From contig NC_088775.1 in NCBI RefSeq assembly GCF_954871325.1, forward strand, positions 29,675,561-29,739,560: a DNA stretch of 64,000 nt. Reading direction: 5' to 3'. Positions 35,146 to 63,172 of this stretch are shown piece by piece (position 1 is the stretch's first letter; each line of letters begins with the position of its first letter). The notes beneath the pieces are model-generated. The model was not told where the DNA came from and did not search any database. It was given only the letters and a program-made list of their open reading frames with translations. The position numbers and the translations under genes were made by a program. The DNA comes from Gordionus sp. m RMFG-2023 (Eukaryota > Nematomorpha > Gordioida > Chordodea > Parachordodidae).

Positions 35146-35280
35146 TATTAATGAATTTATTTTTCATTTGAATTTAATAAGCCTGAAACTAAACGTCGGT
35201 GTGAAACTTAACAATTGATGTACAAATAAACTGATTGTAAGGTAAATTATAATCTTAGAAGTACGTGATACGTGATAAAA

Positions 35281-35497
35281 GCGTTTTCGCCCTCTGATTG
35301 TGGATACAACAAAGCTAAGCTAGGTTTTCCTCAAAAATCCATCAAACTGGATAGTTAATTTAGGGGAGATAAATGAGGAGCCCTTCACACGTTTGTGGGC
35401 AAGCCGCATGTACTTGTACGCGCAACAGTCCGAGAACTGTTGCTTAAACGTCTATAGGCTAATAAACAAAAAGAAATGGGCAAAACAAAAGCCTATA
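35281..35497 (+). ncRNA. Structured repeat copy A (candidate new RNA or RNA-bearing element)
   Basis: Successive helices can be drawn: GCG-TTTT-CGC (35281-35290); TTGT-ACAA (35298-35309); TCCTCA with TGAGGA (35328-35333 / 35374-35379) enclosing ATCCA-TGGAT; a conserved core GAGCCCTTCACACGTTTGTG then a CTTG-loop hairpin; GCAACAGT-ACTGTTGC (35422-35443); TATAGGCT-AGCCTATA (35453-35497). Copy B (59943-60163, opposite strand) keeps the core almost unchanged while the last two helices change by paired substitutions: three compensated pairs plus one wobble in the first, two in the second. I do not recognise it as U1-U6, 7SL, RNase P, 5S or a tRNA. The transcribed strand is undecided. It lies about 140 bp upstream of the proposed ALG3 start, on the other strand. 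Confidence 0.6.
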
Positions 35498-36029
35498 CCC
35501 AAGAACTGCAAAAATAATTTAATTACTTTAAGGGTGGGTGGTGGCTAATTTTAAGTTTAACATCTAATGTAAGCCTTGATAATTACTATCAATAATTGAG
35601 ATTAGAATTTATTCATGAAAATAAGAAAAAGCTAATGGGTTTACCGCAAATTGTTTAAATAGGTGAAAATTCCAGTGAATAGGCAAAAACTAGTCAGTAA
35701 TAGGTTTATGACTATCCAGCAACGAACACCACACAACAAAGGTTTTTTTTTCTTTTTCCTGAGAAACAAAATACTCGATGGAGTAGATAGATTATATAGC
35801 GAAAAAGGTCGATATTGATAAAGATATGAGATAAAGGAACTGACGCAGAAATAGGAACCAGCTCCGTAAGTTTTAGGAAATAGAAAAGTAATTGTTGGCC
35901 AGGATTATCAAAAGGCATTATGGCTTGATTGTTATATGATAGTCTATCACTCACGGAAAGACTCTACCAACAAAAATTACAAACCTCGCCAACCCCCCCC
36001 CCCCCCCTGTCGACTGGTTTCTCTATAAA
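35498..36029. other. No gene; C15 homopolymer
   Basis: Contains an 80-codon minus-strand ORF (35712-35954) without recognisable motifs and a run of about 15 C near 35993-36007, directly before the RT fossil. Confidence 0.35.
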
Positions 36030-37520
36030 TGAATAACAAGTGGTCAAAGACTAAGGGAAAACAAAGCTCCGGGGCTAGATAATATCACAGCAGAAAAACA
36101 AAAAATAGCACCTATAACAATATCTCGCTACCTATATGCCCTCTTTCAATAAAATATGGGAGAGCGAAACTACTGCAGTGGGATGGAACAAATCTTACCT
36201 AAGTAACTACCCAAAAAACTAAGACCACAGAAATTAAAGGGTTACTGAGCTATAGCCATCACATCCTGTAGCATGGGAAAAAAATTTTGGTTCACTCAAA
36301 AAACCACAAGCATATCACCTACACCGAATTTCCCCCCCCCCCTCCCCCCAAAAAAAATACATAAGTATATACAGGTCAAGAAAAGAATATACTGGAGCCA
36401 AAAATTAATTCATAAAAATAATCATGCAGAAAAAGTAAGTACAAACCACCTTCTACTTTACATTTGTAAATTATAGCAGAGCTATTGATAATGTTAACCA
36501 TGCAGCTTCGTTGTCAGAAAAGGGAAACCCCCAACATCTTCCAGATCCAGAAAACCACTAATACATGTTTGGTTGCTTCGAAATCAATGACGAAGAATAT
36601 CCCCTACCTCCAAGGTAAAAAGGAGTAAAACAAGGCTAAACTCTTGCCACTCCTAAATAAAAACATAAAAATAAAAACAAAAGAGAAACACTGGGAACGA
36701 CCAATGTATTAAATGTAGACTCCAATAAAATGTAATGTTTTGAAAAAAAGAAGTTAAAGACGTTAAATCTAGTTAACTAGCAATAATAAAGAAAAATAAT
36801 GATGAATAAAAATAAACAGTTTTCCTCCTTATTTTTCCCAAGAAAAACATGTAACCACTTCAAAAACTTATAGTTAGAACAGGGTAAATGTAGTCACAAT
36901 GTACTTAGGAAACATACTTAATAATAAAAGTAGTTGCAAAGAAGAAAAAAAATAAGAATACAAAGGCGAGTGGAAACTTTTAATCGTATATAAAAATATG
37001 GAAGATAAGAGAGAAATCGGTATTTTCTGGACTGAGGGCACATCCACAATTCCTATATTAGTCTATGGAGGGGGCGGACATGTTAGAGAGACCAAAGAAA
37101 CTGGGAAAGAAAAAAAAATAAAATAAAATAAATAGATGACTATAAACAAATACATAAACAAAAGAGGATACCTTCTACCCCAGAAACATTCCGAACTCAA
37201 AAACTATGGAAAAAAACAAAATATACCCAAAAACTAAGTTAAAAAGAGCCAAAGATTAATTCTAGCCCACATAAGAAACGCAAATCACAAACTATTTCTC
37301 AAATGCCATTAATATATCTTAACTCATATAATGGGAAAAGTATAGATGTACAACAACACCTAAGACATTGTATATGTAATGTATGTAATTAAAAATATGG
37401 GACGGACTGATTTAAATTAGTACATTAAGTCAATAAGATAAATAAAAGCTAATGTCAGTGAAGCAAGTAATTCAAGAAAAGGTGAAAGACAAAGTCAGGA
37501 GGTAAATTGAGAAATAAAGA
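36030..37520 (+). pseudogene. LINE reverse transcriptase fossil
   Basis: Aligned by eye with the intact LINE at 56867-59761, decayed counterparts occur in order: ENKAPGLDNITAEK (36075), an LSYSHHI-like remnant of the DYRAIALTS block (36245), IDNVNHAA (36490), RGKKGVKQG-like (36615), PILVYGG (37050) and LWKKTKYTQK (37205). Stops, frameshifts and homopolymer insertions are frequent, and the YxDD box is not recoverable. The endonuclease half is missing, consistent with 5' truncation. Divergence from the intact copy is large, so it is a related but older subfamily. Confidence 0.75.
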
Positions 37521-38725
37521 GATTAAATTACTTGAAATCCAGAAATAAAAAAAAATTTAAAAAATAAAAAAATTCTGAGAGGTTTAGGTAGTTCGATTTA
37601 ATTTTTAGTAATTTCTTTATAGATTTTTTGTTTTTATTTAGCCTTAGGGATTGTTTCAAATTTAAGTTTAGATCCATTATGTCCTAATCTTAGAAGTAGA
37701 TTTAAACTATACCTCTTTTTTAAATTAATAAAATCAGCTGATCAAATAATAAATATGCCAATTAAGTAAGCTGATAAATTTATACAAATTGATTAATTTC
37801 AAGGGGTAAAATTGGCTAAAATTTTATTTATTGCTTTATTTTTCTATCTATTTATACACAACTAAACTATAAGGCCATGCACTTTCTAAGGGGGAGACAA
37901 ATACAAAAATATCTTCGAAATGTTAATGTAAATGCCATTAAGCAAATAAAATCTCCTCCCCCCTCTTTACTGTAATAAATTATATTGAATGTTATTTATT
38001 GTATATTTTATAAAAAAAGAATGTAACATTCGAATTAATCATTTAATAAATATTGACAATTTTAAAAAAATAATAAAACGACTTATATTAAAATAGCTAA
38101 TAATTAGTCGTAGTCGTTAATTATATTAAAATAGCTAATAATTAGTCGTAGTTGTTAATCCTACAACTAGAAAAACGTAACCTTGCAAGAAAACAAATAT
38201 TTCAAAATAATCATTTAATAGAAATCGTTTTTTTAAATATATATTTAATTATTTCCTTACCCATTACCTTGTTTTTTGCTAATTAAAAATTATTTATAAA
38301 TATAAAAGAAAAAGAGTTTCAATGAAAAACTCAAATATCTTAACTAAAAAATAATAACTTTATTTTACTAAAATAATCAAATTTTTTGTTATAATTTTGG
38401 CAAAACATATTAAACCTTTTTTCTAAATTCATACATGAATTTTTTACAAAAAAAAGAATAATACCTTGTATGTGGTATATACAAAAAAAATCATATTTTT
38501 AAAAGTTTGGATGCCCCTAAAATTATCTAATTTTGGTGGCCCAAAGTGGCTGCCAAACTTGCACCCCCCCCCCCTCTGACTGCACGGAAACGTCGTGTTT
38601 GTAAACTTTATTCCATATTTTTACAACCACAATAATATCAAAATAATAAAATATCCAAATTATCTAAAAAACATTAAAACAATGATAGTATGTTTACACA
38701 ATTTTTTTTCACCAGTCACTCTTTG
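37521..38725. other. AT-rich DNA, small duplication
   Basis: No gene. A ~37-bp tandem duplication around AAAATAGCTAATAATTAGTC lies at 38090-38160 and a C10 run at 38562. CTTTG at 38721-38725 is the left target duplication of the LTR element. Confidence 0.45.
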
Positions 38726-43272: not shown

Positions 43273-44945
43273 CAGTTTTTTGAACACTTAATTGCTTATA
43301 TTTTTGGATTTGTTAAAATTGTTTTATATTTTCATATAACAAAATTTTAGGGTATTTTATTATATATTTTACATTCCTTTCTTTAATCATGTATATATTT
43401 TTATTAATTAAAATATTTTCAAAATGTTGATATTTTATATAATACAGATTTTAATATTAAAAATTATAATGTATAATGTATAAAGACTCTATTTTTAAAA
43501 AAAGTAATTTTTTAAAATTATATAAAATATGTGTAATTCTTATGCAAATAATGGTCTTTAAAAAAATATGAGGATATTATCTTATAAATAATACTTTTTT
43601 TACAAAAAAAAATTGATTATTTATCAAAACTATTAAAATTTTATTGCTATTTTTTGATTTGAATTTAAAAAGAGAGATCTACTTTTCTCTGAGATTTTGC
43701 TAAAGAATCAAATTTTTATTTAAAATAATCTCCTTATAAATATTCAATAGGTCTAATTCATTTAAACGTTTTTCACTGGTTGTGTTTCTTAAATAGGTTT
43801 TTAACCTTTTTAAAGTTGAAAATGACAGGTATTAATTGGCAAGGTAGCTAAAATCATTACTAATGCTTTGAAATTAGGCAGGGAATCTAAAATGCAATTA
43901 CACATGGATAGGGCCTGCATAGCATTTTTTGTCTCAAAGAATACCCTATTCTGTCAAGATTTTTATACCAAAATTCGACATCACAAAGTAACTTATCATA
44001 TGAACCTACTACATCAGCATAAAACTCTGAGATTTTTTTAATATCCTCTCGTGTTTCAAGTGTAATCAACAGTTTAGACTCAACCGGCAAAAGAAAATAA
44101 AAACTTTTTAAAATATAATTATGACTAATAAATCTTTCTTTTAATTGAAATAAAAATGTATCAATAAGGGGAATAAAAATGTTTATTTTATAAAAATCCT
44201 CAATCGTAGATGCATCAATATTTGATCGATTGGATTGTCTAGAGACTACTCTAGGTTTCAAAATTTCAATTCCAAACATATTAGCAATCTCCTTTACTTT
44301 TTCATATATTTCATGAAATTTTTCATCCACATTCTCTCTGATTTGTTAATATTTCAACAATATTCTTTGCTCTATTCATAATCTCCCTTAAATCCAAATC
44401 AATTTTTTGTAGCATTTTGCTAAAATCATATGTATAATTAAATAAAAAATAAACACATTAAATTGAAATTAAAAACTGTGGCTTAATAATAGCCTGCAAA
44501 GATTTTCGGCAGAATCTTTTTCCTTGCTTGATATATAAAATTCTAGTGCTGCAAAGACAACATCATACAGTTCAATAAAAAGTTTCACCGACTCTTGTCT
44601 TTCGAGAATCTGGTCGGATAAAATCTTTTTAGTTTTTTTTTTTGATTTTTTGAGTCAATATCATGATACGTTTGAATAAATATCTCCCTTTTTTGGGTGG
44701 TGTGAAATTCTTATTGAAAATGAGAAATATATATTTTTATAAAATGGAATATGACAAACAAACTAGACAACTTTTATGAAATGCAAAATAATATAAAATT
44801 TATTTAATAAATATAAAAATAATCAAATGTGTATATCTATTATTATTTATAATAACATAAAAATCAAGCGTTTATTAAGAATTTATTTTAAAAAAAAATT
44901 TCATGGAGGGGGGGGGGTTTAACCCCCCCCATTCCTACGCCACTG
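43273..44945 (-). mobile_element. hAT element inserted in Ty3 RT
   Basis: The right terminus on the minus strand is CAGTGGCGTAGGAATGGGG, a typical hAT end. Flanks ATCGTGCT (44946-44953) and ATCGTACC (43265-43272) match 6 of 8, and deleting the element with one flank restores the Ty3 reading FLEHDIDEKGIHP apart from a 1-nt shift. The left end has only CAGT in common with the right, so that TIR is decayed. Confidence 0.8.
43722..44645 (-). pseudogene. hAT transposase, C-terminal half, decayed
   Basis: Minus-strand order: LERQESVKLFIELYDVVFAA (about 44615), a short gap, a 147-codon open frame (44330-43887) with VSRQSNRSNI and FYKINIFIPLIDTFLFQL, then past frame breaks ILATLPINTC and SFSTLKRLKTYLRN with LNELDLLNIYKEI. 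These are the RNase H-like catalytic region and the hAT C-terminal dimerisation domain. The N-terminal zinc finger and first catalytic block are not visible. Non-functional. Confidence 0.8.
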
Positions 44946-44953
44946 ATCGTGCT

Positions 44954-45750
44954 CCAAGAACCGTAGTTTTTAAAAAATATACTTTTTTCAAAGTTAGGTG
45001 TAAGCCCATATTTCGATATCTTATCAAATACCAATCTTATGTTGTTTAAATGAGCTATATCGTCGCCTCCGGTAATCAGTAGATCATCGATATAAAATAT
45101 TACATCATTCATGTCTCCGAAAATGTTATCCATAGTTTGTTGGAATATTGCCGACGAAGTTTTTAAACCAAACGGCAGTCTCGTAAACCTATAATAGCCC
45201 TTATGTGTCGAAATTGTAAGAAAATCTCTTGATTCTTTGTGTATAGGTATTTAGAGAAACGCGTTTTTAAAATCTATCTTGGTAAATTTTTTACCTTTAT
45301 ATAATTTTGCGATTAAATCATTAATGCGTGGTATAGGGTACTTGAAATCTTGTAAAACAGGGTTGATAGTATTTTTAAAGTCGGCACAGAGCCGAAGTGA
45401 GCCATCGCTCTTATAAACGGGAGTGAGAGGACTAGCCCATCTAACATCTTCAACAGGTTCATTAATTTTATCGTTTAACCACTTATGAAGTTCTTTTGTT
45501 ATCAAATCAATTCTAGAATATGGTATACGCCTTGGCGGTATGATTTTCGGTGTGGCATCGTGTTTTAAACGTAATTTGACATAGCTGCGAAGCATTAGCT
45601 TTTTGTTAAGTTTAAAATTGCATTGCTTAATTAATTCTTGTATAGTATTATCATAATCATCCTCGACCATATTCACAAATTTATCTAGTATATTCCCAAA
45701 AAATGTTATCCAGATCCTTCTTAACAGTGCAATCTTATCACTCTGGACTA
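44954..45750 (-). pseudogene. Ty3 reverse transcriptase, N-terminal part
   Basis: Two open pieces (45676-45251 and 45133-44960) joined across one in-frame TAA at about 45252. Motifs in order: WASPLTPVYKSDGSLRLCAD, FTKIDFKNAF (first catalytic Asp), RLPFGLKTSSAIFQQ, and VIFYIDDLLI with the catalytic IDD. The chain then runs toward FFKNYG and is cut by the hAT insertion at 44945. Apart from the stop and a 1-nt shift, the polymerase residues are intact. Confidence 0.85.
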
Positions 45751-56045: not shown

Positions 56046-56129
56046 TAATACAATATTACTTTTGCCACATTACTATAAAAGGCCTCTCTTCTCAAATCTG
56101 CATTTTGTAAAAGTTTTATTTTTATTTCT

Positions 56130-56420
56130 CCCTTCAAATTTTAAATCTTTTTCTACTAATATGTCTATGTCGATTCGATCTTTTTCTAAGAGCCGTAACT
56201 TGGATAATCTTGGGCGACTTGAACATTAGGATTGGGAAGGAGGAATACTATAGCTAATTTTTTCTTTTACTCACAAAACGTTTTTGCACTCTAATTTTAA
56301 ATCAACTTGCGTTCACAATAGCCTACCAAACCTGAGGTAATTTATTATTTCACTTTGTTGATGCTTATCTTATTTGTTTTAAGCGATCCTCAAATTATGT
56401 AGATATAATTTATTTTGGAT
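56130..56420 (+). pseudogene. LINE endonuclease remnant
   Basis: TWIILGDLNIRIGKEEYY resembles the GDxN block of the AP-type endonuclease in the intact ORF downstream (ILIGDVNTKIGLEE), and YVDIIYFG resembles its SQIDFF block. Stops and shifts separate them. This seems to be an older LINE copy just upstream of the intact one. Confidence 0.5.
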
Positions 56421-56866
56421 AAGAGATTATACTCCGTGAATAATCTCACCCCTTGCCCCCTTTCACCCAAATTACTTACAAAAATTCATACCCCTCCCTT
56501 TTCAATAGATTGTATAGGAAATCATTGATTTCCCCCACTTTTTAAAAGTTTAATCTAAATCTTACTGTAGAAAATTGGATAAATAATACTAAATCTCTAA
56601 TTTCCCAATACTGGATTAACTTCTATATTATTTAATACCTTTGTACCGTACCATTTCCCCGGTTGTGGTTTTAGAGTTGTATTACTTTTTACATTAAGAA
56701 ATTTAATAAAAAAAAAACCAATTTATAGCAATTAAGGATTTTAGATTTAAGGTGATAAATAAGTGTTATTTTTCTAAAGTTATTATATCCCAGAGATTAT
56801 TTTATAATTTATTCATCTTTCATTTCTCTTTTGTTTTGTGAATTTTTTTCTCTTGATTTAAGAGAG

Positions 56867-59761
56867 ATGTATAATCTTAAAGGACAATTACTTATTTCCT
56901 CAATAAATATTAATGGTTTATGTGAAAAGTTCGCTGTTCTTCTGAAACTCATGCTAGATGAAAATATGGACATCATTGCTATACAAGAAACCCACTGTCA
57001 GGGCAATTCCACCGCGTCCTTTAATAATTTTATTTTTTATGGCTCCGGAACCACTCTTAATAGCTGGTCGGGTGTTGGATTTCTGATAAATAAAAAAATA
57101 TACAAGTACATAGATAAATTTGTTCCAGTTTCTGAGAGATGCGGCCTATTATATTTAAACACTAATTTCAGGAAAACTATTTTTATTAATATCTATGTTC
57201 CTCCAAACAGAGGAGCTAGATTACTTTTCTTTGATGACTTGGAAAACATCATTTATGCTCTACCAATGAGATTTAATATCATTTTAATAGGTGACGTCAA
57301 CACCAAAATTGGTCTAGAGGAGACATACAAAAACAGAGGCATAATTGGTAATGCTACTCTCGTTCAACCTAACAGGGATGATAGCAGGAAACTACTTGAC
57401 CTATGTGATAGTTTTAACTTCAAAATTGAAAACACCTTTTTTCAACACAGGGAGACTAATACATATACCTTCTATAGAGGAAGTTTTAGATCACAAATTG
57501 ATTTCTTTATATCGAACGTCCATAGCTGGTTCAAAAATGTTACGGCGATGACGAATATTAACTTATCCGACCACAGAATGATTAAAGCCAAGATTCTAAT
57601 CAGGAATATTTGGGGAACCTTTGGTAGAACAAATCACACTTCTCACCTCCAGACAAATACTTTAAGTAGACTAAACGTTAGAAATTTACAAAATCCTGAA
57701 ATTAAAGATAGATTTAACCGTAATTTATGTGGCAAGATTATTAGTTTTGAGGACATTGCTCCATCTAAAACGGTCGAAGAATGCTGGTCTATTTTTAAAG
57801 AGCAGATCAATGAAGCAAGTAGGGCCTTAACAAATAACTATGCCCCGATGAGGAACGAGTGGATTTCGAGATCAACGTCACTTTTGATAGAGGAACTTCG
57901 TCGTAGGAACCGCTTCGATAGGGAATTATGGAAAACCATCCAGAGGTCTTTAAGGAGTGACAGAAGAATTTTCGTAGCCAGCAAAGCCTTTGAGGTTGAG
58001 GCGGACATGAGAGGTGGAAGATTACATGATGCATACAATAAACTCAGATATTTCTGTAAATCTAAATTTCTTAGGGATTTACCTTATATACGGTTAGGAA
58101 ATGATAAGATTATATTTGATCAGGATGATCAAGTTTCCCTCTGGACCGACTACTATATGACTATCTTCGAATCCAGAAAACCCATGATGGTTTCTCGAGA
58201 ACAAGATTTTACCACTCTATCTGCCTCCAATTTTACATTGGCTGAGATATCTAATGCCTTAAAGAAATTGAAAAATCATAAAGCTCCTGGTCCAGACAAC
58301 ATTGCTGGGGAACAATTGAAAGCTGCACTTGACGCGGTACCACGTTTTTTGCTTATTATTTTTAATAAGGTATGGGCCTCCGGGACAACTCTCAAAGATT
58401 GGAACTTATCTACGTTATGTAATTTTCCAAAGACTCCTAATCCCATTAACTTTCGGGATTATAGAGCTATAGCCCTCACATCTACTGCGTCTAAAGTCTT
58501 TATGGTTCTACTCAAGACGCGTATTTTACAAACATCTCATAATCTCTTCGCGAAATACATTTGCGCTTATCGTCCTGGTAAAAATATCTTAGAGCCTTTC
58601 CTTGCTCTTAAAATTATAATTCAAAAATGCGATAGATATAAATTACCTTTCTTCTTCACCTTTATTGATTTCAAACAGGCTTTCGACAATGTCAACCATG
58701 AAGCACTCTGGGCAACATTATCAGAGGTTGGAATCGACCCCAATATAATTAGAATATTAAGGCATCATTATAATAACTTGTTTACCACTTGCAGAATAAA
58801 TAACAATGTTTCCCCTCCGTTTAGGATAAGGAAAGGAGTAAAACAAGGCTGTGTCCTTTCTCCTATCCTTTTCAATATTATAATGAATAAAATTCTTAGA
58901 GATACACTAGGTGCGGCAAACTTGATGGAACTCAACGCTTCATTGAACAACACGTTTCACCTAGAAAATAGAATCATCTCCTACGCCGACGATGTGGTAA
59001 TTATCACAAGGGACCTTGAGGAAACTGTGAATCTAATCCAACTACTGAAACTTGTGAGTTTGAAAGCTGGACTAGAAATTAATTTTAAGAAAACTATGAT
59101 CCTCCCAGCAAGGCATACGCCTCCTGTGGGAAATATTGTTATCGGATTGGAGACTATTAAAGTGGTTACTCAAATCAAATACCTAGGTATTACTTTAAAT
59201 AACAGAGGAGGGTGTAAAGAGGAACTTAGGCTGAGATTACAAAAGGCCAGGGTAGCCTTCTATAAATATTTCAAGCTCTGGAACACGAGAGAAATTCCCA
59301 CCCTCACTAGATTACGAATCTTTAATTCTACGGTGATTCCTATTTTATTATACGGTTGTGAAACTTGGGAAATCACGAAAGCAGAAAACAAAAGATGCCA
59401 GACATTTATAAACAAATGTTTAAGGATAATAAACGGTGTTTTCTACCCCAGACTCATAACTAACGAAAGATTATGGAGGCAATCTAAACACACTCCTTTT
59501 CACAAAATACTCAAGAAGAAGCGTATACAATTTCTAGCTCATATCCTTAGACACCCCAACAATAACATAGTCCATGACGCTTTAACATGGCTCTTTACTT
59601 GCAGAGGTAAATCATATAGTAGATATAAAATGCTATGGTTTCACCGTGTCCTGAAAGACGTTGCTGATCTAAACATTAATTGGAAACAGTTCGTTAGACT
59701 GAATAATAATAAAAATTCTATTAAAAAGCTTCTGAAGATTAAGTCTAGATACCTTAGATGA
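56867..59761 (+). CDS. Intact LINE ORF: AP endonuclease plus reverse transcriptase
   Basis: 964 codons from the first ATG (56867); the frame is open upstream only to a TTG. Residues about 10-236 form the target-nicking apurinic-type endonuclease with its catalytic blocks SSININGL, IQETH (40-43), ILIGDVN (142-145) and LSDHRM (234-236). The reverse transcriptase follows: KAPGPDN, DYRAIALTSTASK, FTFIDFKQAFDN (catalytic Asp near 601), GVKQGCVLSPILFN, ISYADDVVI (YADD 706-709), IKYLGITLN, then the C-terminal ILLYGCETWE. All expected catalytic residues are present and there are no internal stops, so it may be recently active. Single-ORF layout and LYGCETW resemble RTE/CR1-like LINEs; I do not assign a clade firmly. 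In target-primed reverse transcription the protein nicks DNA and copies its own RNA. Confidence 0.95.
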   Translation: MYNLKGQLLISSININGLCEKFAVLLKLMLDENMDIIAIQETHCQGNSTASFNNFIFYGSGTTLNSWSGVGFLINKKIYKYIDKFVPVSERCGLLYLNTNFRKTIFINIYVPPNRGARLLFFDDLENIIYALPMRFNIILIGDVNTKIGLEETYKNRGIIGNATLVQPNRDDSRKLLDLCDSFNFKIENTFFQHRETNTYTFYRGSFRSQIDFFISNVHSWFKNVTAMTNINLSDHRMIKAKILIRNIWGTFGRTNHTSHLQTNTLSRLNVRNLQNPEIKDRFNRNLCGKIISFEDIAPSKTVEECWSIFKEQINEASRALTNNYAPMRNEWISRSTSLLIEELRRRNRFDRELWKTIQRSLRSDRRIFVASKAFEVEADMRGGRLHDAYNKLRYFCKSKFLRDLPYIRLGNDKIIFDQDDQVSLWTDYYMTIFESRKPMMVSREQDFTTLSASNFTLAEISNALKKLKNHKAPGPDNIAGEQLKAALDAVPRFLLIIFNKVWASGTTLKDWNLSTLCNFPKTPNPINFRDYRAIALTSTASKVFMVLLKTRILQTSHNLFAKYICAYRPGKNILEPFLALKIIIQKCDRYKLPFFFTFIDFKQAFDNVNHEALWATLSEVGIDPNIIRILRHHYNNLFTTCRINNNVSPPFRIRKGVKQGCVLSPILFNIIMNKILRDTLGAANLMELNASLNNTFHLENRIISYADDVVIITRDLEETVNLIQLLKLVSLKAGLEINFKKTMILPARHTPPVGNIVIGLETIKVVTQIKYLGITLNNRGGCKEELRLRLQKARVAFYKYFKLWNTREIPTLTRLRIFNSTVIPILLYGCETWEITKAENKRCQTFINKCLRIINGVFYPRLITNERLWRQSKHTPFHKILKKKRIQFLAHILRHPNNNIVHDALTWLFTCRGKSYSRYKMLWFHRVLKDVADLNINWKQFVRLNNNKNSIKKLLKIKSRYLR

Positions 59762-59942
59762 AATTCCTTAGCCGTTACCAAACCTCTTCTTTCCCCTCTT
59801 TTTCTACTCGATTACTTTATAGTACAGGTTTCTTCTCTCTTTTAATTATTACATTATATATATGACTCGCCAAATATTAACTTAAATAGCCCCCCACTTT
59901 CCAATTTTTGATTTAGATACAATTAGGTTTATAGGTATGGGT

Positions 59943-60163
59943 GTGGGCTGTCTTTTAGGCTTCCCCCTCTTAATCAGCCCACAGACGTTTAAATAATAGC
60001 TTATAAACTATTATGCGTACAAGTACGTGCGGTTTGCCCACAAACGTGTGAAGGGCTCCTCATATTTTACTTTATACCTTAACTTAATTTCTCCAATTAG
60101 ATGGAAATGAGGAAAACCTAGCGTAGCTCTGTTGTACCTACAACATTGAGAGGGCGCATGCGC
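59943..60163 (-). ncRNA. Structured repeat copy B
   Basis: The reverse complement aligns with 35281-35497 through the core GAGCCCTTCACACGTTTGTG and CGTACTTGTACGC-type hairpin. Helices here read ATAATAG-CTATTAT (59993-60014) and GTGGGCTG-CAGCCCAC (59943-59982), changed in both strands relative to copy A. It lies 180 bp after the LINE stop codon on the opposite strand; since copy A precedes a plus-strand LINE fossil, it is not simply that LINE's 3' end. Confidence 0.6.
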
Positions 60164-61555
60164 TTTATTCGGTATTCCGTATAAAATATTTTCAAGGTCC
60201 AAATAAGTATAAGAGATTTTTTTTTTATAAAAAGTAAGTAGATATATAGTTTATAATCCTCTATTATATATAATTGGTTATAAAATATTAGGTAAAATGC
60301 CACTTTTACAAGCGTATTTGACAATTATATAATATATTACAGTTAATATTTTAATAAATTTTACTAATAAATGCTTTTGATGATAAATATAAGTATCAAT
60401 TTATGTTCAATTTTTTAACGCCATCTATATATTTAAAAATATTAATAAAAATTGAATATATAAAAAAAAAATTTAGATGTAATAAATTAGCTATCTTTTC
60501 TTCTCTTTTTTTGCGTGTTTTTAGAAAAGCTATTTTTTATTTGAAAAACAGTTATGAGTTAAATTTTTAATACATTTTTTATTATTACAAACTACTATTA
60601 TTTTAAGTTGTAATAATATACCAACTAGAGGTGGTGCTACAATAGTATATAAAATCTTAATTGCTTTTATCTATCACTCTGGTTTTTATTTTATAGTTAC
60701 AAAATGTTTCATTTATAATATGGCATAATTGCTGTATAAATAACTTAAGGCTTCAATATATTTGCATAATTTCTTCTAAAGATTTTTAGTGTTTTAGTTT
60801 TCAATTTATCTAACATAATAAATTCTGATATGGGTTACCATCGTGAGTGTCATGACTATGACTGTAAATTAACCAGCATCTATTATTTGCTGGCTTAATT
60901 TAAGATTATTACTCCTGCTGCTGAGAGCATATGATTGCATATTTTAGATAAGCAATAATGGCCAACTCTTTAATCGTTTATATATCATTAAAAATGGAAG
61001 ATAATCTTATGGAAATTTAATATCTCACAATAATTTTCTCGATTATTTATCTAGCTTCCATCATGTCATCTAAGTGTAAGCTCTAACCATCATATAGTTT
61101 TATGATTTGGATTGTTCGTTTATATTCTCTTCTTCAAGAATTGTTGATTTGGTTTAGCCTCTAAATTTTTTCTTATTAGTCCATTCTATAAAACATTGTC
61201 TAAAATAGGAGTTATATTAGTTTCATGACCTTTTATCAATTTAAGTTGCTAATAATAATATTATATTATGTGGTTTTTAAAAACCATTATCAATTATGGC
61301 ATATGTTTTTTTATCACTTGTAATTCTTTAGACGCAGAATTTTTTATATCAGCAATCGAAAATATTTTATACTGTAATAAATAGATTTTGTATTAAAAAA
61401 TATTATTTTTAGAAATATCTTATATTGTTTAATTATTTATATGCGAGTTTATTTTTTATGCATAATATAATAAATGACAAAATATGAAATTTAGAATAAT
61501 TGTTCAGAGTTAGCAAATTTAAAAAAGTATAATATATTAATATAAAACCCCCCAG
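60164..61555. other. AT-rich DNA, no gene seen
   Basis: Lies between the structured repeat and the right hAT-like terminus. I looked on both strands for transposase blocks and found none. A G/C patch at 61550-61640 is the terminal part of the hAT-like segment. Confidence 0.4.
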
Positions 61556-61863: not shown

Positions 61864-62598
61864 ATGGTAGATTCAACAAGAATCAAATTAAATAAAATAT
61901 TGATTAAAAATATAAATGTAAAAGTAAAATTTTTTAAATTGGAAAAATATGAAAAGCACCAAAAAATTCCATTTGGTTTGACTAGCGCTCCGATAATATT
62001 CCAACGCTTTATGAAAAACCTATTAAAGGGAATTCCTATGGTTAGTGTATTTTTAGACGACATAATTATTGCAGGTGAGAATAATTCCGATCATATAGTT
62101 AATTTGGAAGAAGTATTAAGAAGATTTGAGAAGGCTGGACTGACCACGACGACCGATAAAATTAAAATCGAAGAAAAGTCAGTCACTTATTTAGGTCATG
62201 TTATTGACAGTTTCGGAATTCACCCTACAGAAGATAAGATTAGCGCTATAAAAAATTTTAAAACACCTTCCAATGTTAAAAAACTACGTTCATTTTTTGG
62301 AATAGTGAATTATCATGACGCATTTATTAAAAATTTGCATTCCATTTGTGGGCCTTTACACCGACTAACGAGTAAAAATGTTGGTTGGTTTTGGTCAGCT
62401 AAAGAAAATGAAATATTTACTAAAGTTAAAAATATATTGTCAAAAGAAGATACAATAATTCCTTATTCAGCCGATATCCCTGTCGTGATTTCTTGTGACG
62501 CTTCCGAAGATGGTCTAGGAGCTGTTATTGCACACCGATTTCTTACTGGCCAGGAGAAACCGATTGCTTACGCATCGAGGAACACTTTCGGCGGCTGA
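61864..62598 (+). pseudogene. Ty3 RT (C-terminal part) and RNase H start
   Basis: The ORF carries IPFGLTSAPIIFQRFM, the catalytic VFLDDIIIAG, VTYLGHVIDSFGIHP, LRSFFGIVNYHDAF and RNase H entry ISCDASEDGLGAVIAH with KPIAYASR. The first ~25 residues are not RT-like, and the fingers and first catalytic aspartate of RT are absent. A frameshift near 62585 moves the frame to the next ORF. The polymerase would be inactive. Confidence 0.9.
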
Positions 62599-63172
62599 AA
62601 AGAATAATGCCACAATTGATCGGGAGGCTTCGGCGATCATGTTCGCTATCGAGAAGTTTCATCAATATATTTTTGGAAGACATTTTATCTTGGTTACTGA
62701 TCATAAACCATTACAATATATTTTAGGTGATAAAAGAGATCTTAACAAAATAACAAATAACCGTTTAATACGGTGGGCGACGAAACTATTAAATTATGAT
62801 TATGAGATAATATATAGACCAGGTAATCAAAATAAATGTGCCGATGCTCTGTCCCGTTTGGGGGTAGAGAAAGCAAAAACCAATGAAGTTACAAAAAAAT
62901 TCGAAGAAGAAATCAGAGGATTAAAAATTAATTTAATAGAGGATTTATCTTTCACACGCAGTAAAGTCGTAAGTGAAACGAGCAATTATATAAACCTAAA
63001 AGAGATTATTAAATTAATAAAAAATCATTGGTATATTGATAATATAAATAATTATTCGGAGATTGTAAAAAAATATATTTCGATTAAAGATAATATTTCG
63101 TTCGAAGAAGGATTATTATTTTATAATGATAGAATTATTATTCCAGATATTTTAAAAAAGGATTATATGTGA
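62575..63172 (+). pseudogene. Ty3 RNase H remainder and linker to integrase
   Basis: Picks up directly after the frameshift: RTLSAAEKNNATIDREASAI, FHQYIFGRHFILVTDHKPLQ, IRWATKLLNYDYEI and GNQNKCADALSRL, the C-terminal RNase H and tether signature of Ty3 elements. Then a lysine-rich linker to a stop at 63172. RNase H residues D and H visible here look intact. Confidence 0.9.

What the first reader, a model, noticed from the sequence alone, without database searches (positions are those of the whole stretch)
35281..35497. Two-copy repeat with compensatory base-pair changes: a candidate undescribed structured RNA
Copies A (35281-35497, +) and B (59943-60163, -) share an almost unchanged ~50-nt core, while two helices differ by matched substitutions. 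GCAACAGT/ACTGTTGC versus ATAATAGT/GCTATTAT shows three fully compensated pairs plus a U-A to U-G wobble; TATAGGCT/AGCCTATA versus TGTGGGCT/AGCCCACA shows two more. An outer TCCTCA/TGAGGA helix and a hairpin in its loop are also kept. Neutral decay of a dead repeat should not produce five paired changes. It does not match a known RNA class that I recognise, and the two copies lie in unrelated contexts. It could be a small RNA gene, a SINE-like element, or an RNA domain of a transposon.
Basis: partly seen in the sequence, partly recalled or inferred. Interest (0 to 1): 0.85.

Follow-up and report, generated by a model that had tools for sequence, protein, structure and literature searches.

The report
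Structured 3' tail of horsehair-worm LINEs
The repeat is the folded end of the RNA made by a family of jumping genes in a horsehair worm, and it is probably the handle by which their copying enzyme picks its template, a handle that small parasitic elements have borrowed.

Summary
The repeat and its paired changes are real, but the finding's strand and context are wrong. Copy B lies 177 nt 3' of an intact 976-aa AP-endonuclease/reverse-transcriptase LINE ORF (56831-59761 +). Copy A ends a LINE 3' UTR on the minus strand whose ORF I could not detect. Both are the ~235-nt 3' terminus of one LINE group in a horsehair worm (Gordionus). All 20 LINE 3' flanks fetched (50-80% protein identity to B's) carry the domain in sense. 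Within families changes break pairs about as often as they keep them; between families they mostly keep them. So the source LINEs kept the structure, not the dead copies. G-U against A-C counts (117:25) support the LINE strand. Rfam has no match in the window. Short SINE-like elements with an unrelated head carry the same domain; one head family sits on three LINE tail types. Best reading: a template-recognition RNA for target-primed reverse transcription, a new member of a known kind, larger than the stem-loop tails of zebrafish L2 LINEs.

The parts
56831..59761 (+). LINE ORF, 976 aa: N-terminal AP-type endonuclease, central reverse transcriptase, no RNase H family found
   Evidence: Pfam Exo_endo_phos 5.4e-10, RVT_1 3.4e-35
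59762..60179 (+). 3' UTR of that LINE
   Evidence: between the stop codon and the end of the tail repeats
59939..60179 (+). copy B of the structured 3' domain, in sense, including tail repeats of the type TATTCCG
   Evidence: bit score 235
59942..59983 (+). B, P1: 59942-59949 with 59976-59983
59985..60018 (+). B, P2 (59985-59988 / 60015-60018) enclosing P3 (59993-60002 / 60005-60014, one C-A mismatch in B)
60036..60056 (+). B, P4: 60036-60039 with 60053-60056 (hairpin in the little-changed core)
60057..60113 (+). B, P5 (60057-60063 / 60107-60113) with P6 (60092-60095 / 60102-60105) in its loop
60120..60164 (+). B, P7 (60120-60124 / 60160-60164) closing P8 (60126-60130 / 60151-60155) and P8b (60131-60134 / 60141-60144)
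35262..35500 (-). copy A of the structured 3' domain; sense strand is minus; tail repeats at 35262-35276
   Evidence: bit score 221
35280..35497 (-). helices of A: P1 35490-35497/35453-35460; P2 35448-35451/35418-35421; P3 35434-35443/35422-35431; P4 35397-35400/35380-35383; P5 35374-35379/35328-35333; P6 35348-35351/35338-35341; P7 35317-35321/35280-35284; P8 35311-35315/35289-35293; P8b 35307-35310/35297-35300
35262..37600 (-). long 3' UTR of an A-type LINE copy, of which A is the last part; no ORF of its LINE was detected further upstream on this strand
   Evidence: 35262-36996 is 89% to L004; 35262-36508 is 83% to the 3' flanks of intact A-type LINEs L062 and L065, and 37432-37600 is 76-77% to the stretch right after their stop codon; no minus-strand protein match
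35870..37195 (+). reverse-transcriptase fragment lying antisense inside the A-type 3' UTR
   Evidence: tblastn pieces, 30-60% identity

Best explanation
The repeat is the ~235-nt 3'-terminal RNA domain of a group of AP-endonuclease LINEs (non-LTR retrotransposons) in Gordionus. In the LINE transcript it folds into a chain of about eight helices ending just before a short repeated tail. The LINE protein most likely binds this fold, places the repeated tail at the nicked target and starts target-primed reverse transcription there, so the domain marks an RNA as a template. Short elements with an unrelated head use the same handle in trans. SHOWN: position, sense, helices with compensated changes in the source lineages, sharing with the SINE-like elements, target-site duplications for part of these. 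INFERRED: binding by the LINE protein, its role in starting reverse transcription, trans-mobilisation.
For: Position and sense: 20 of 20 fetched LINE 3' flanks carry it in sense after the ORF (L079 lacks its 3' end), and 0 of 12 fetched LINE 5' regions do. Changed pairs still pair between family majorities (1008 of 1300, 570 by double change) but not within families (45 of 95, 1 double). Strand: 117 G-U against 25 A-C cells in sense. Sharing: in 27 of 32 places with the SINE-like head the domain is matched 3' of it (20, seven; head places), on three LINE tail types. A match of 9 bp or more between the flanks in 9 of 15 tested copies, mismatched pairs 17.6% of 210. Known precedent: zebrafish L2 LINEs need and bind their own 3' stem-loop, and R2Bm starts TPRT only on RNA with its 3' UTR (passages).
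Against: No binding or retrotransposition was tested. An all-pairs covariation screen with a tree-aware null called no single pair (best E = 0.72); support is at helix level. P3 is missing in L078/L080; P4 and P5 change shape in the L070/L071/L072/L088 clade (38-42 of 46-50 consensus pairs). Single-sequence folding is only mildly better than shuffles and not much better than the other strand (z -2.1 sense and -1.7 antisense for B; -1.5 and -1.2 for A). Flanks examined are 20 of the 47 candidates scored, and only one genome was available. Three of 32 head places show no LINE tail, and 6 of 15 copies show no clear target-site duplication.
Confidence: 0.83

Rival explanations
1. The domain is a host-facing signal of the LINE mRNA (3'-end processing, stability, export or translation), not the reverse transcriptase's recognition site.
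For: It lies at the 3' end of elements that end in short repeats, not in a long poly(A) run; sharing with short elements would also follow if these need a 3' end.
Against: The same domain is on several LINE tails and on elements with an unrelated head, part of which show target-site duplications, which points to what they share in retrotransposition. In well-studied LINEs the 3' structure serves the reverse transcriptase (passages).
Confidence: 0.1
2. Free-standing structured small-RNA gene or an autonomous SINE without LINE origin, as the finding proposed.
For: Hundreds of dispersed copies, and some copies are in short elements.
Against: 20 of 20 LINE 3' flanks contain it after the ORF; in the short elements some 75-100 nt upstream of the domain are also LINE-derived (332 nt in all at 90% to the LINE in L054).
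Confidence: 0.02
3. Self-cleaving ribozyme in the 3' UTR that sets the RNA's 3' end.
For: Retrotransposons are known to carry ribozymes (R2 5' end, abstract start of PMC3414825 in the listing); the core is nearly unchanged.
Against: No Rfam ribozyme family appears in the window at gathering score, nor in permissive scans of nine loci and of five SINE-like loci; a 3'-terminal ribozyme would have to cleave at the tail repeats, whose number varies.
Confidence: 0.03
4. Apparent compensation is an artefact of two related copies plus alignment.
For: The finding rested on two copies; related sequences inflate simple shuffles; no single pair passes the all-pairs screen.
Against: The tree-aware helix null and the slid-partner controls are exceeded clearly; the alignment was made without structure.
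Confidence: 0.02

Closest known systems
Stringent-type LINE 3' tails (UnaL2 of eel, ZfL2-1 and ZfL2-2 of zebrafish) and their SINE partners
   Same: LINE with endonuclease and RT; conserved RNA structure and short repeats at the 3' end; such tails are shared with SINEs (passages of PMC4176376).
   Different: Those are single stem-loops, in ZfL2-2 read through the loop; here the domain is ~235 nt with about eight helices. No Rfam match in the window. Binding not tested here.
R2 retrotransposon 3' UTR
   Same: Similar size (248 nt in R2Bm) and multi-stem fold at the LINE 3' end that decides template choice (passages of PMC10499050).
   Different: R2 has a C-terminal restriction-like endonuclease and inserts in 28S rDNA; this LINE has an N-terminal AP-type endonuclease and dispersed insertions.
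RTE-clade LINEs (RTE-1, SR2/SR3, BovB, lepidopteran RTEs)
   Same: One ORF of about 1000 aa with AP endonuclease and RT, no RNase H found, short 3' repeats, TSDs; SINE partners are known (passages).
   Different: RTE 3' UTRs are described as short or extremely short, 14 bp in one full-length case and 177 bp in SR3; here roughly 160 to 1150 nt lie before a large structured domain. Clade not placed by a tree.

Membership tests
Stringent-type LINE 3' recognition RNA | lies in sense at the 3' end of the LINE transcript | tested here: met
   20 of 20 fetched flanks, of 47 candidates scored
Stringent-type LINE 3' recognition RNA | conserved secondary structure with compensated changes | tested here: met
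   helix level; single pairs not significant
Stringent-type LINE 3' recognition RNA | shared with SINEs of unrelated head | tested here: met
   27 of 32 head places; three tail types
Stringent-type LINE 3' recognition RNA | bound by the LINE protein and needed for retrotransposition | not testable with these tools
   needs binding and retrotransposition assays
RTE clade | single ORF with AP endonuclease and RT, no RNase H | tested here: met
RTE clade | very short 3' UTR made mostly of simple repeats | tested here: not met
   177 nt in B, roughly 160-1150 nt in the 20 flanks, before a ~235-nt domain
RTE clade | groups with RTE in an RT tree | not tested
   no named reference set at hand; the closest protein listed outside this genome is 27% identical
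R2 LINE | restriction-like endonuclease and insertion in 28S rDNA | tested here: not met
   AP-type endonuclease; dispersed sites
Known Rfam LINE elements (UnaL2, R2; recalled as Rfam families) or any other Rfam family | match to the covariance model | tested here: not met
   0 at gathering score in the window; six weak matches below gathering score on nine loci, none a LINE element
SINE | short, dispersed, target-site duplications, LINE-derived 3' end | tested here: met
   duplications in 9 of 15 tested
SINE | head from a Pol III gene (tRNA, 5S, 7SL) | tested here: inconclusive
   no tRNA in seven loci and no Rfam match on the head in five; origin unknown

The most novel reading that the evidence does not exclude
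AP-endonuclease LINEs can carry an R2-sized, multi-helix template-recognition RNA at their 3' end, kept while about half of the protein's residues changed, and it works as a portable module: one SINE head family has been joined to the tails of at least three LINE lineages, so a parasite can change its copying partner by changing its 3' domain.
Probability: 0.35. Interest if true: 0.62.

Novelty: new member of a known kind. Interest (0 to 1): 0.45.

Why it matters
How a LINE's enzyme picks its own RNA has been worked out for few elements (my own view of the field). Here is a natural series of LINE lineages (14 domain clusters under 93% identity, at least nine of them seen behind a LINE ORF) with one protein type, one large RNA fold with many compensated changes, copies identical enough to have moved recently (seven copies of a 222-nt domain, the query among them, are identical), and parasites sharing the RNA. 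That allows direct tests of which helices the enzyme reads. It would also make a new RNA family for annotating nematomorph genomes.

Tried and rejected
Organism: I first guessed grape phylloxera from genome size and GC (paper search 43); wrong. Contig lengths (54603052 and 93749283) equal C3 and C1 of this genome, and the records are Gordionus sp. m RMFG-2023 (Nematomorpha). All-pairs covariation screen: no pair significant alone (best E 0.72). SINE head as a piece of the LINE 5' region: no convincing match in 13 LINE 5' regions (best E 4.6e-5, short and AT-rich). SINE head as tRNA or Rfam RNA: none. L119 looked like a fourth tail type when B- and L054-type tails were not in the comparison; with them it is L054-type. 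First P5 script anchored wrongly; its P5 search lines are void, redone: the expected P5 is the best local helix in 20 of 23 copies (not in L070, L014, L097), but shuffled 5' strands do as well in 2-49% of trials for these 20, so that test is weak and P5 rests on the compensated changes. Target-site duplications: 20 short copies taken, five dropped because the head motif was not found, 15 tested. Exact 19-base core in viral contigs: one hit (L127), no domain there, taken as chance. Bacterial/archaeal genomes: 0 for the 32-base pattern. Endonuclease-like words upstream of the window ORF gave no tblastn support (E 3). Nothing on this domain was seen in the listings of paper searches; these list only part of their hits and cover open-licence papers only.

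Full report
CHECK OF THE OBSERVATION. The two copies are where the finding puts them and the quoted helix strings are present. They are 76% identical over 199 bases (L031 against the window). A covariance model from 14 copies (A and B among them) finds these two places and no other in the window. Real limits are 35262-35500 and 59939-60179. On the other strand these are 3'-terminal repeats of the kind LINEs and SINEs carry, which was the first sign that the finding reads the repeat backwards.

GENOME AND CONTEXT. The window lies in a 287-Mb genome. Two predicted proteins of Gordionus sp. m RMFG-2023 are listed with contigs of 54603052 and 93749283 bases, the lengths of C3 and C1 here, so the source is this horsehair worm, phylum Nematomorpha. 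Copy B starts 177 nt after the stop codon of a 976-aa ORF on the plus strand, 56831-59761, with an N-terminal AP-type endonuclease and a reverse transcriptase. B is thus in the 3' UTR of a LINE, in sense on the plus strand. Copy A is the end, on the minus strand, of an A-type LINE 3' UTR: 35262-36996 matches other such copies at 83-89%, and 37432-37600 matches, at 76-77%, the stretch right after the stop codon of intact A-type LINEs. Protein searches found no ORF of this copy on the minus strand, so it is cut off or decayed there.

LINES OF THE GROUP HAVE IT. The B-LINE protein finds 47 scored candidates in this genome (a capped list), many without stops. I fetched the 3' flank of 20 of them, 50-80% identical to the B protein. 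All 20 contain the domain in sense after the ORF; L079 lacks its 3' end. In A-type LINEs it starts about 1.1 kb downstream, elsewhere roughly 160-360 nt. Twelve fetched LINE 5' regions have none. The domain is better kept than the coding DNA in the pair compared: L009 and the B LINE are 64.7% identical over 1290 bases of coding DNA and 77.4% over 199 bases of the domain. A 32-base core pattern with one open base occurs 380 times in the genome, reversed control 0.

STRUCTURE. From 105 domain hits on the sequence held, 100 were full length; 23 representatives under 96% identity were aligned without structure. Nine helices give 93.8% of 1145 cells and 20 of 51 pairs changed on both sides; slid 33-50%. 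Against this, an all-pairs screen finds no single significant pair (best E 0.72). Single-sequence folding is only mildly better than shuffles (z -2.1 for B, -1.5 for A in sense; -1.7 and -1.2 on the other strand). P3 is lost in L078/L080, and P4 and P5 differ in the L070/L071 clade.

STRAND. One pair is U-G in 23 of 23 copies.

WHY DEAD COPIES DO NOT CONTRADICT IT. Against their own family majority, 95 changed helix pairs were counted in the six families of at least four copies: 45 keep a pair, 50 do not, and only 1 is a double change. Between the majorities of the 16 families, 1008 of 1300 changed pairs still pair, 570 by double change (98 full copies, L001 and L031 left out as duplicates of the window; these family comparisons overlap and are not independent). 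Selection acted on the LINE lineages; inserted copies decay freely.

A SINE-LIKE ELEMENT USES THE SAME END. Copies such as L036, L037 and L041 are about 430 nt long (428-437 in these three): a head starting GGTTCGGTTTTTCCGG, then some 75-100 nt of LINE 3' UTR, the whole domain and the tail repeats. Other copies carry a longer or different head. The head search lists 32 places. In 27 the domain is matched 3' of it: 20 by the positions of BLAST matches, seven by the domain HMM (L101 and L120 weakly). Two more (L121, L123) match LINE 3' UTR; three (L122, L125, L126) show no LINE tail. The covariance model scores L123 and L120 weakly (E 7e-4 and 1.4e-3) and L121 not at all. Tails are of three types: L054/B-type, A-type (L101) and L071/L072-type; heads on the last two are only about 70-80% like the first. 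Nine of 15 copies tested have a match of 9 or more bases between the 3' flank and the 5' flank; mismatched pairs reach that in 17.6% of 210 (five further copies were dropped). The head is not from the LINE 5' regions examined, is no tRNA and matches no Rfam family in the loci tested; its origin is open.

MECHANISM. Zebrafish L2 LINEs need their cognate 3' stem-loop and the ZfL2-2 protein binds it, and SINEs share tails with partner LINEs, in the RTE clade too (passages of PMC4176376, and PMC3747384). R2Bm starts target-primed reverse transcription only on RNA with its 248-nt 3' UTR, modelled with at least 11 stems (passages of PMC10499050). By position, conservation and sharing, the Gordionus domain most likely does the same job: the LINE protein binds it and feeds the repeated tail to the nicked target. 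Binding and priming are inferred.

WHAT IT IS NOT. No Rfam family reaches its threshold in the window. A permissive scan of nine loci gave six matches, all below the family's gathering score; the only one on the domain is 5.8S rRNA at E 0.036 with 21.9 of 42 bits, on the strand opposite to the LINE (L072); a tmRNA match at E 0.0039 lies outside the domain. The LINE has RTE-like architecture, but RTE 3' UTRs are described as short or extremely short (passages), so I do not file it as RTE without a tree. I rate it a new member of a known kind; its size in an AP-endonuclease LINE and the head-sharing are the unusual points.

Noticed in passing
35870-37195 +: A-type LINE copies carry a reverse-transcriptase fragment antisense inside their long 3' UTR; it recurs in many A-type copies, e.g. 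L004, L010, L013, L022, L024.
   Followed up: partly
56120-56177 +: A stretch of about 60 nt in the region 5' of the LINE ORF is 83-88% alike with the 5' regions of LINEs L110-L112, L114 and L115, while the rest of that region did not align with them.
   Followed up: no
L037, L041, L036 (SINE-like copies): Between the target-site duplication and the start of the head lie some tens of nt that differ from copy to copy; could be filler from 5' end joining.
   Followed up: no
L070 family, e.g. G000:C2:16407372-16407593: Seven copies of the 222-nt domain, the query among them, are 100% identical on four contigs, so this LINE lineage moved very recently.
   Followed up: no
G000:C2:23899613-23904936 and C1:14382420-14385194: Pairs of closely related domains in opposite orientation 2.5-5 kb apart; L040 and L051 also hold two opposed domains.
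   Followed up: no
61864-63172, 45251-45676 and 43887-44330: ORF fragments that look like LTR-retrotransposon polyprotein pieces, judged by eye from their translations.
   Followed up: no
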